A DNA stretch of 26,757 nucleotides from IMG/VR virus record IMGVR_UViG_3300050010_000163, positions 1-26,757 of that record; one strand, written 5' to 3'. Each line of letters opens with the position of its first letter. Positions within the stretch are counted from its first letter, which is position 1. Positions 24,525-26,757 of the stretch are shown here, piece by piece. The notes beneath the pieces were generated by a model. The model had not been told where the DNA came from and did not search any database. It was given only the letters and a program-made list of their open reading frames with translations. The position numbers and the translations under genes are program-made. The DNA comes from a virus.

Positions 24525-25205
24525 ATGCCGTTCAAAGCCATGCCGGGAATCTATGAGATTTCCTGCTCCGCAACCGGGAAGCTGTACATCGGTTCAGCGA
24601 AAAACATCAAGGAGCGGTGGAAGATCCACAAGCAGAGGCTACGAGCCGGAGACCACCACTGCGGCCATCTGCAAAATGCCTGGAACAAATACGGAGAAAC
24701 CGCATTCACCTTTTCCATGCTTGAGATGGTTGCGGATGTGAAACAGCTTGTTCCGTATGAGCAGGCGTGCATAGATGAACTTTTAAGCACTGGCTTATTG
24801 TTCAATTCTGCGCATGTGGCTGGCAGTACGCTGGGCGTCAGGCCATCAGCGGAGACGCGCCGTAAAATGGCACTCATCCACAAAGGGAATAAATACAATC
24901 TTGGTCGCAAGGCATCCGAAGAGACACGCCGGATATTGAGCCTATCGCACATGGGGCGCGTTGGCCCATGGAAAGGCAAGAAGCGCTCCGAAGAATGGAA
25001 GCGCCAGATCAGCGAGAAGGCGAAGGCGCGCGTGTTCACCGAAGAGCATCGGCGCAAGATAAAGGAGGCGTTGGCTGGCCGCTACACTCACGGCGAGAAC
25101 CATCATTGGTTTGGCCGCAAACATTCTCCAGAAACCTTGGCAAAGATGAGCGCTGCACGTACGGCATGGCACGCCCGTAAAAAGGCTGAGGCTGTCGCGG
25201 TGTGA
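24525..25205 (+). CDS. GIY-YIG homing endonuclease with NUMOD3-type repeats
   Basis: This 226-residue protein has the GIY-YIG catalytic domain: PGIYEI (Gly8-Ile9-Tyr10), LYIGSA (Tyr21-Ile22-Gly23), catalytic Arg31 in ERWKIH, LQNAWNKYGETAFTFSMLEM and Glu79 in YEQACIDELL. The C-terminal half has several NUMOD3-like DNA-binding repeats (RPSAETRRKMALIHKG, KASEETRRILSLSHMG, KRSEEWKRQISEKA, HSPETLAKMSAARTAW). This arrangement is typical of free-standing segD/segE-like phage homing endonucleases. It follows the fibre genes and overlaps the glycosyltransferase start by four bases. It is the second homing endonuclease in the window. Confidence 0.9.
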   Translation: MPFKAMPGIYEISCSATGKLYIGSAKNIKERWKIHKQRLRAGDHHCGHLQNAWNKYGETAFTFSMLEMVADVKQLVPYEQACIDELLSTGLLFNSAHVAGSTLGVRPSAETRRKMALIHKGNKYNLGRKASEETRRILSLSHMGRVGPWKGKKRSEEWKRQISEKAKARVFTEEHRRKIKEALAGRYTHGENHHWFGRKHSPETLAKMSAARTAWHARKKAEAVAV

Positions 25206-25981
25206 TCGACCCCAGTCGCCTCATCAGTGCGATCATGCCCGCGCGCGGGAGTCCGGCTATGGCCGCTGCTGCCCTGGAGTGCTGGCGGCGGCAGACGTGG
25301 CTGGACGTGGAGTTGGTGATTGTGGACGATTCGGACGCGCCAGCATTCCCGGAGTGGGCCAGGAAAGCCAAAGAAATGGCCGCCGCTGGCGCACAGGCTG
25401 GCTGTGGCGCGTCGGCGGGAATCCAGCCGCCGAACGGTGCCACCAGCCTCACCGAAGGCAGCGTACGGTATTTCTGCCTTCCAGATAAGATCACTATTGG
25501 GGAAAAGCGGAATCTGGCATGTGCTTTGGCGTACGGCGAGTTCTGCGCCCACTTCGACAGCGACGACCACTCCGCCCCAGGCCGCCTAGCCGATCAAATG
25601 GAGCACATGCGCTCCGGCGTGTCCGTAGTGGGCTACCATTCAATGCTCTGGACGGACGGAGTGGGTTGGTGGCGGTACGATGGCCCGCTGTTCGACGGCG
25701 CCTACGGGGCTCTTGGAACATCGTTCCTGTACCGCAAATCCTGGTGGGAGACGCATCACTTCCCACGCGGGCCGGTCAATCGAGTGGACGCGGAGGATAA
25801 CCCGTTCGTGCAGGCCGCGATGAATGCTGGCGTATTCGTTGGGGTGCCGGCGCGGGAGATGATGGTGGCGCGGATACACCCGGACAATACCAGCCCAAAG
25901 TCAACGGGCGGAATGCGATGGCATCCGGTTCAAGATGCTTCCACATTGCAGCGATATCGGGCTATGCTAGGAGAATTATGA
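25202..25981 (+). CDS. Family 2-like glycosyltransferase
   Basis: This 259-residue protein starts with GTG overlapping the previous stop (GTGA). It has a GT-A fold pattern: ISAIMPARGSPAMAAAALEC, ELVIVDDSDAPAFP with Asp42-Asp43, GEKRNLACALAYGEFCAHFD and the metal-binding DSDD at residues 119-122. The later LGTSFLYRKSWWE and DAEDNPFVQAAMNAGVFVGV contain the usual acceptor-side acidic residues. An Ala/Gly-rich insertion of about 30 residues separates the two halves of the nucleotide-binding domain. It may modify host surface sugars, phage DNA or virion glycans; the target is unknown. The following gene was an epimerase, which supports a sugar pathway. Confidence 0.8.
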   Translation: MIDPSRLISAIMPARGSPAMAAAALECWRRQTWLDVELVIVDDSDAPAFPEWARKAKEMAAAGAQAGCGASAGIQPPNGATSLTEGSVRYFCLPDKITIGEKRNLACALAYGEFCAHFDSDDHSAPGRLADQMEHMRSGVSVVGYHSMLWTDGVGWWRYDGPLFDGAYGALGTSFLYRKSWWETHHFPRGPVNRVDAEDNPFVQAAMNAGVFVGVPAREMMVARIHPDNTSPKSTGGMRWHPVQDASTLQRYRAMLGEL

Positions 25982-26028
25982 ACATCCTCGTTACCGGCGG
26001 AAACGGATTCATCGGGCGCCACGTTTGA
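25978..26028 (+). pseudogene. Truncated NAD-dependent epimerase/dehydratase, first 16 codons
   Basis: MNILVTGGNGFIGRHV is the classic N-terminal Rossmann strand and glycine-rich loop (TGGNGFIG) of nucleotide-sugar epimerases and dehydratases, normally about 300 residues long. It has AGGAG (25969-25973) upstream and overlaps the glycosyltransferase stop by four bases, so it was the next gene of that operon. It ends in TGA at 26026-26028. That TGA is also the first three bases of the repeat array, so the coding sequence is lost exactly at the array boundary. Confidence 0.85.
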
Positions 26029-26450
26029 TGCTCTCGTCTACAATGGTTCACTCGGGCTTCATGGTACTCTCCTGCTATGTGGTTCACTCGGGCCTTTTGG
26101 TGCTCTCTAAGCAAATGGTTCACTTCGTCTCTCTTGGTGCTCTCATCATCACTGGTTCACTCGCCCCACTTGGTGCGCTCCGTGTGCATGGTTCACTTGG
26201 ACTGCCTGGTGCTCTCATCATCACTGGTTCACTCCTGATGCCTGGTACTCTCAGCACCCCTGGTTCACTCGCCGGTTTTGGTACTCTCATCCACGATGGT
26301 TCACTCGCCGCTTTTGGTACTCTCAAGATAACTGGTTCACTCCTGATGTCTGGTACTCTCTGAATCCCTGGTTCACTCTCCGCCGTTGGTGCTCTCCGGG
26401 CTTATGGTTCACTCGCTCTTCATGGTACTCTCGAATCCAATGGTTTATTT
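26026..26450. repeat. TIGR-like array: two alternating 10-nt repeats with 8-nt variable spacers
   Basis: Repeat A, TGGTTCACTC, occurs at 26044, 26080, 26116, 26153, 26189, 26225, 26261, 26297, 26333, 26369 and 26405. A degenerate copy, TGGTTTATTT, is at 26441. Repeat B, TGGTACTCTC or TGGTGCTCTC, occurs at 26062, 26098, 26135, 26171, 26207, 26243, 26279, 26315, 26351, 26387 and 26423. A degenerate TGATGCTCTC is at 26026. Every gap is exactly 8 bases except one of 9 (26126-26134), so the full period is 36. Gap sequences differ: after A, for example, gggcttca, gggccttt, gccccact, ggactgcc; after B, for example, ctgctatg, taagcaaa, cgtgtgca, agcacccc. This matches what I recall of TIGR arrays (edge repeat, spacer, loop repeat, spacer; ~36-nt guide RNAs) and not CRISPR. 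The minus-strand gene beside it suggests minus-strand transcription, where the repeats read GAGTGAACCA and GAGAGYACCA. Confidence 0.9.
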
Positions 26451-26757
26451 CATCGGCCAGTTTGGCGGGGCCAGCAGGTCCATGTGGCCCATGTGCTCAA
26501 TGACGTAAGGCAGTGCAGGCGGTTGGCCGGTCTCGGACTCCCAAGCCACCCATTGCCAATGAGCCAAGAACAGCTTGACCGTCCAGCGTTTCGCCCGTGC
26601 GTGGATATGGGCCGGGGGCAGGAAGCCTTTGGAGTAGTAGGAATACGCATCGGTGTCCTTGCCAATTTTGTACTTGTCGAGCTTGGCCGCCGCCTGGTCC
26701 GCGAGCGCGCCAGATTCGTTGCGCTTTTGTTCGTAGTCCTTGCGAATGAGGTAGAGT
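26445..26757 (-). CDS. C-terminal part of a candidate Tas-type (array partner) protein, cut by window edge
   Basis: On the minus strand an open frame enters from the right edge and ends in TAA at 26447-26445. It gives 103 residues beginning LYLIRKDYEQKRNESGALAD and containing QAAAKLDKYKIGKDTDAYSY, then YSKGFLPPAHIHARAKRWTV, KLFLAHWQWVAWESETGQPP and ALPYVIEHMGHMDLLAPPNW. Codon use and a charged-helix, aromatic-rich pattern look like a real folded domain, and no frame on the + strand is comparable. The stop codon lies inside the last degenerate array repeat, so gene and array directly adjoin. Tas proteins of TIGR systems carry a Nop5-like RNA-binding region; the helical G-x-x-P-x-x-x-x-x-x-A-R/K pattern is compatible with such a domain or with the C-terminus of an IS110-type transposase. 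The identification rests mainly on adjacency. Any nuclease domain would lie upstream, outside the window. Confidence 0.55.
   Translation of the reverse strand, partial: LYLIRKDYEQKRNESGALADQAAAKLDKYKIGKDTDAYSYYSKGFLPPAHIHARAKRWTVKLFLAHWQWVAWESETGQPPALPYVIEHMGHMDLLAPPNWPMK

What the first reader, a model, noticed from the sequence alone, without database searches (positions are those of the whole stretch)
26445..26757. Partial minus-strand gene abutting the array: candidate Tas effector
A 103-residue C-terminal fragment with a helical, basic, aromatic-rich domain ends inside the last array repeat. Direct adjacency to a guide-type array makes it the likely effector. Whether it carries a nuclease domain (RuvC-like TasR, HNH-like TasH or neither) is decided by sequence beyond the window.
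Basis: inference. Interest (0 to 1): 0.82.

Follow-up and report, generated by a model that had tools for sequence, protein, structure and literature searches.

The report
Phage TIGR array with TasA-type gene
A virus of bacteria carries a row of paired mini-guides next to the cut-off end of the gene for the protein that uses them, a recently discovered RNA-guided DNA-binding system, here most likely the kind that grips DNA without cutting it.

Summary
Window 26448-26756 (-) encodes the last 103 residues of a Tas protein; its stop codon lies inside the first repeat of a TIGR dual-repeat array, 24 repeats at 26026-26450 (-), unit = edge GAGTGAACCA + 8 nt + loop GAGAGYACCA + 8 nt = 36 nt. The repeats alone, used as a search pattern, fetched 10 phage contigs, and all 10 encode a homologue. 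The fragment matches the solved TasR (9MTY) at E 3.7e-7; a full-length relative folds like TasH/TasR (Z 20.4, 18.8) but starts after their nuclease domains. None of 84 complete relatives showed a nuclease domain, so the effector is most likely TasA (RNA-guided binding without cutting); residues beyond the window cannot be seen. New member of a known kind. Two extras: a sister phage has an intact epimerase gene exactly where this array begins, so the island is variable; and in one relative, a prophage of Acidobacteriaceae KBS 96, one of six guide pairs matches perfectly (16/16) the start of an excisionase-like gene in a second prophage-like element of the same host (about 0.06 exact hits expected by chance): a lead, not proof, to natural targets.

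The parts
26445..26757 (-). C-terminal 103 residues and stop codon of a TasA-type Tas protein (gene runs off the contig end; positions 169-270 of a 282-position family profile)
   Evidence: ORF; PHROG and PDB matches; profile positions and relatives
26026..26450 (-). TIGR dual-repeat array: 24 repeats, 11 complete edge-A-loop-B units counting the degenerate first edge repeat, plus a cut twelfth; 8-nt spacers (one of 9)
26441..26450 (-). degenerate first edge repeat AAATAAACCA (box C kept), overlaps the tas stop codon
   Evidence: in 15 of 41 distinct loci with arrays the first recognised repeat starts within 30 nt of the tas stop
26026..26035 (-). last repeat GAGAGCATCA at the junction with the broken epimerase gene; no edge repeat or terminator follows
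25978..26028 (+). first 16 codons of an NAD-dependent epimerase-like gene, cut at the array junction; intact in sister phage L102/L107

Best explanation
This is the 3' part of a phage TIGR-Tas locus of the nuclease-free TasA type: a gene for a Nop-like RNA-binding protein followed at once, on the same strand, by its guide array. Expected mechanism: the array is transcribed, TasA is needed for and holds 36-nt tigRNAs cut in the middle of the edge repeat, and a TasA dimer uses the two 8-nt spacers to pair with opposite strands of a 16-bp DNA site (top strand = spacer A followed by the reverse complement of spacer B, gap 0-2), opening and bending it without cutting. Shown here: gene, array, homology, fold of a relative, no nuclease in relatives. 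Inferred from published TasA/TasR/TasH work: RNA processing and pairing rule. Inferred and least sure (about 0.45): the job is to silence genes of rival mobile elements or of the host.
For: Array repeats alone fetch 11 stretches on 10 contigs; all 10 contigs encode a homologue (8 of 11 stretches; contigs of L012, L013 and L014). Fragment: phrog_4285 1.8e-12, TasR 9mty 3.7e-7 (9MTY is the TasR RNP). Profile of 56 relatives: TasR 1.4e-23, TasH 8.3e-14, IS621 2.0e-4. Full-length relative L031: all 11 Foldseek matches at E<=0.001 are TasH or TasR chains; VIA Z 20.4 to TasH and 18.8 to TasR, model residues 22 and 25 aligning to TasH 64 and TasR 111. Both repeats end CCA and share their start GAG; edge positions 4 and 7 form a standard pair in 566 of 631 distinct edge repeats (C-G 296, T-A 204, T-G 66), the loop mostly does not: the edge rule stated for TasR. 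Arrays lie on the tas strand in 41 of 70 distinct loci, on the other strand in 0. No nuclease domain seen in 84 complete relatives.
Against: Two thirds of this protein is outside the window; the 40-nt contig end has no exact match in the viral collection. The fragment model alone gives only weak fold matches (Foldseek TasH E 1.3; VIA Z 3.8, below an unrelated row at 4.2). Pfam's Nop family was not among the families hit in the relatives. The array lacks the truncated 3' edge repeat and terminator described as typical. Targets are not established: 0 of 453 units has an exact target in its own source and cross-contig matches equal re-paired controls.
Confidence: 0.82

Rival explanations
1. The effector is a nuclease-bearing Tas (TasR or TasH): an RuvC or HNH domain lies in the part beyond the window, and the system cuts DNA.
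For: The fragment's best solved match is TasR, 3.7e-7, against TasH 0.68; spacers of 8 nt are also those reported for the TasH of a Salicola phage (16 nt in all).
Against: Scores to nuclease-free relatives are far higher (134.7 bits, against 33.7 for TasR) and none of 84 complete ones shows such a domain. HNH_3 hits in L100 and L040 are below Pfam's cut-off and cover profile positions 2-27 of 46 at the C terminus only.
Confidence: 0.1
2. A decaying or chimeric locus: the junction at 26027/26028 is an assembly artefact or a deletion that cut the array's far end, and the locus may not be functional.
For: The array stops at a degenerate loop repeat joined to codon 16 of an epimerase gene that is intact in a sister phage, with 127 of 127 identical bases up to the join; no terminator on the array's strand.
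Against: 23 of 24 repeats are within one mismatch of consensus and the register is kept; the tas fragment is open and conserved. Loss of the far end would not touch the eleven complete units.
Confidence: 0.2
3. An IS110-family transposase next to an unrelated tandem repeat.
For: phrog_4285 is labelled transposase; relatives match Pfam Transposase_20 in 51 of 56.
Against: No IS110 catalytic-domain family appeared among the four families hit; the fold is closer to Tas (Z 20.4, 18.8) than to IS621 (13.4); repeats and homologue recur together in 10 of 10 contigs.
Confidence: 0.03

Closest known systems
TIGR-TasA systems (Faure et al. 2025, PMC12045711; named sections read)
   Same: solo Nop-like protein, dual alternating repeats, 36-nt period, array abutting the gene, tailed-phage genome, box C CCA shared by edge and loop, extra covarying edge pair
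   Different: 16 nt of spacer per unit where FpTIGR has 18; both repeats start GAG where TasR repeats start UG; the array's far end is joined to a broken gene without terminator
TIGR-TasR (9MTY) and TIGR-TasH (21KL, 9W04)
   Same: homologous C-terminal part and fold of the relatives; same array logic
   Different: relatives of this protein begin where TasR residue 111 and TasH residue 64 align, so lack their N-terminal nuclease parts
IS110-family recombinases (IS621, ISCro4)
   Same: shared RNA-binding domain fold (Z 13.4)
   Different: no IS110 catalytic domain found in relatives; a guide array instead of one bridge RNA

Membership tests
TIGR-Tas | array of two alternating 8-12-nt repeats with spacers of about 9 nt, 36-nt period | tested here: met
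   10-nt repeats, 8-nt spacers (one of 9), 24 repeats; shuffles at most 1
TIGR-Tas | adjacent Tas (Nop-domain) protein gene | tested here: met
   by homology to Tas proteins; a Nop family was not hit in Pfam
[quoted passage not shown] extra covarying pair in the edge only | tested here: met
   566 of 631 distinct edge repeats pair at positions 4-7; loop mostly A-A or A-G
TIGR-Tas | array ends with truncated edge repeat and terminator (described as typical, not as defining) | tested here: not met
   the array stops at a degenerate loop repeat fused to an epimerase gene
TIGR-Tas | array processed to 36-nt RNAs that guide DNA binding | not testable with these tools
   needs small-RNA sequencing of a pull-down
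TasA | no nuclease domain | tested here: inconclusive
   N terminus outside the window; 0 of 84 complete relatives shows one
IS110 transposase | N-terminal DEDD catalytic domain | tested here: inconclusive
   not hit in 56 relatives; this protein's N terminus is outside the window
CRISPR-Cas | one repeat of 25-36 nt, with cas genes | tested here: not met
   two alternating 10-nt repeats; no cas gene named among the ten window proteins scanned

The most novel reading that the evidence does not exclude
Phage TIGR-TasA is an RNA-guided silencer that one mobile element uses against rivals in the same cell. In the relative from Acidobacteriaceae KBS 96, the prophage's guide pair TAAAAGCA/TTCGATTC matches 16 of 16 bases, gap 0, near the start of an HTH_17 (excisionase-like) gene of a second, capsid-encoding integrated element, and another guide pair matches 14 of 16 about 0.9 kb away in that element. 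The array in this window would do the same job against unknown rivals.
Probability: 0.3. Interest if true: 0.85.

Novelty: new member of a known kind. Interest (0 to 1): 0.5.

Why it matters
What TIGR-TasA does in nature, and what its guides point at, is an open question, stated as such in the founding paper. This window adds a phage locus to a large nuclease-free family (417 loci in the viral collection), shows that the island can differ between close phages, and led to a named relative (KBS 96) in which a guide and a candidate target sit in one genome, so the question can be tested directly.

Tried and rejected
Single-sequence searches of the fragment found no relatives in viral contigs or phage records; Pfam gave only an insignificant DUF7373 hit. 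Extension of the contig by its last 40 bases: no match. Fold comparison of the fragment alone was uninformative. Rfam: no match in the window. No Nop5 or Prp31 chain was in the rows listed by Foldseek or VIA; that excludes nothing.

Targets. With arrays masked, 453 units from 43 sources (some duplicates, such as G022/G023/L045) had 0 exact own-source targets; at <=2 mismatches 21 against a null mean of 38.6. That deficit looked like avoidance of self, but a finer count without G023 and L045 (428 units) gave 20 against 35.9 at gaps 0-2 and a like deficit in a control arrangement (44 against 65.1 at gaps 3-8), and none at 3 mismatches, so I drop it. Other contigs: 2 exact hits, controls 0-2 (G009, G023 and L045 left out as near-duplicates). 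Host genomes: KBS 96, 1 of 6 units; Halomonas NO4, 1 of 4 units, gap 1, inside an MFS-transporter-like gene, which I take as chance because that word is GC-rich (0.094 of the 0.098 hits expected in that genome). Relatives of the candidate target gene in viral contigs: none.

HNH_3 hits in 2 of 56 relatives were traced to L100 and L040, sub-threshold and C-terminal.

Full report
What is there. The window is a virus record of 26,757 bases with head-maturation protease, major head, tail sheath, tape measure and baseplate genes, so a contractile-tailed phage. At its right end, on the minus strand, the last 103 residues of a gene run in from beyond the contig. The stop codon TAA at 26445-26447 lies inside a degenerate repeat, and from there an alternating array runs to 26026: GAGTGAACCA, 8 nt, GAGAGYACCA, 8 nt; 24 repeats, one spacer of 9 nt. 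Shuffles give at most 1 such repeat against 23.

What the protein is. The fragment aligns with the end (192-276 of 277) of PHROG 4285 and with 9mty_A at 3.7e-7; 9MTY is the TasR RNP of Faure et al.. A search by the array repeats alone gave 11 stretches on 10 contigs. Eight of the 11 stretches hold a homologue, and the contigs of the other three (L012, L013, L014) hold one too, so 10 of 10. In one search, 41 of 43 records matched PHROG 4285; the two without are the sister-phage contigs L107 and L108, fetched by a baseplate gene. A profile search of viral contigs found 417 relatives, of which 80 were kept, and of genome contigs 6, among them Acidobacteriaceae KBS 96, Halomonas sp. NO4 and two Bryobacterales bins. 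The closest by the fragment are L100, L031 and L099/L040, 59-64% identical over the alignment.

Which kind of Tas. Of 95 matching frames 84 were complete (with duplicates: 74 distinct sequences over all frames used). 73 of the 84 leave fewer than 20 residues before the profile even from the furthest upstream methionine. Eleven leave 20 or more; five of these, scanned with the extension, show no nuclease domain. Fifty-six relatives, scanned from the nearest methionine, hit only Transposase_20 (51), HNH_3 (2, sub-threshold and C-terminal), DUF7373 (2) and DUF3701 (1). The AlphaFold2 model of L031 (pLDDT 92.6) aligns to TasH from residue 64 (Z 20.4) and to TasR from residue 111 (Z 18.8); IS621 and ISCro4 have 13.4, the next unrelated row 8.3. 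So the relatives are TasA, and the window's protein most likely too.

How it would work. Faure et al. (sections read) showed for TasA, TasR and TasH that arrays are processed to 36-nt tigRNAs cut in the middle of the edge repeat, and for TasR and TasH that spacers A and B pair with opposite strands of adjacent DNA. From their 8-nt 3' overhangs, and the statement that cleavage is 5' to the nucleotide pairing with the fifth base after box C, I derive that the target's top strand reads spacer A, then the reverse complement of spacer B. In this family both repeats end in CCA and begin GAG; the edge repeat has a covarying pair between positions 4 and 7 (C-G 296, T-A 204, T-G 66, C-A 46, others 19; 631 distinct), which the loop mostly lacks. 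That is the edge rule described for TasR; a cut in the middle of the edge repeat would leave these two bases on the two ends of one tigRNA, free to pair (inference). Arrays of at least four such repeats lie on the tas strand in 41 of 70 distinct loci, on the other strand in none; 29 had none in the stretch held.

The junction. The glycosyltransferase-like gene next to the array (25202-25981) led to a sister phage, L102/L107. It is identical to the window for 127 of 127 bases up to 26027, 100% from about 25811 and less leftwards. Beyond 26027 L102 continues an epimerase-like frame of 331 codons in all, open at its contig end, whereas the window turns into the array. So the TIGR island is present in one and absent in another near relative at this spot, or the join is chimeric. 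The island's other edge is not in the window.

Arrays in general. Within arrays, of 3,566 pairs of units, 6 share spacer A but not B, 2 share B but not A, none shares across A and B; 0.05 expected for each. In the window GTGATGAT occurs twice as A, and two pairs of B spacers differ by one base. Spacers are thus reused, keeping their side.

Targets. No own-source or cross-contig enrichment. In the host of the KBS 96 prophage, one of six guide pairs matches exactly with gap 0 at 6,329,962-6,329,977 (the other five none; backwards controls 0 in all). About 0.06 exact hits were expected over the six by a Markov model of 4-letter words from 140 kb of that genome. The site lies near the start of an HTH_17 protein (1.3e-6), by an HTH_3 regulator, an integrase, a prohead protease (1.8e-26) and a capsid gene (3.5e-35); the TIGR prophage itself lies near 0.136 Mb of the same scaffold. 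A second guide pair matches 14 of 16 at 6,329,052 in the same element. Halomonas NO4: 1 of 4 guide pairs, in a transporter gene, 0.098 expected. Together 2 hits of 10 against 0.16 expected: a lead found after the fact, not proof.

Literature. Searches (listings seen) found one primary TIGR-Tas paper and reviews; passages of one review were seen. The founding paper says genuine targets are difficult to identify. I found no report of natural targets in those searches; the papers behind the 2026 TasH structures did not turn up in the library.

Verdict. A real TIGR-Tas locus, most likely TasA, in a phage: new member of a known kind.

Noticed in passing
window 25978-26028 and L102 3729-4721: Epimerase-like gene cut after 16 codons exactly where the array begins; continued in the sister phage, which has no array there.
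   Followed up: partly
window 24525-25205: GIY-YIG homing endonuclease gene between the tail-fibre-like gene and the glycosyltransferase-like gene; in the sister phage L102 these two genes adjoin directly without it.
   Followed up: partly
L209 (1-3016) and L210/L211, KBS 96 scaffold about 6.322-6.332 Mb: About 10-kb integrated element with integrase, regulators, prohead protease and capsid: a small prophage or capsid-encoding satellite; carries the candidate TIGR target.
   Followed up: partly
L008 (3408-7157) and L015 (8610-12522): Two phages with nearly the same tas gene have very long arrays (86 and 88 repeats) that share only 10 of 39 and 30 parsed units: fast array turnover.
   Followed up: partly
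arrays of 43 sources: Spacers reused within an array keep their A or B side; none crosses sides.
   Followed up: no
L058 (5843-5962), L061 (2715-2834), L062 (1623-1742): Variant arrays with repeats like AGTGAACCCA and AGAGCACCCA, outside the main repeat type.
   Followed up: no
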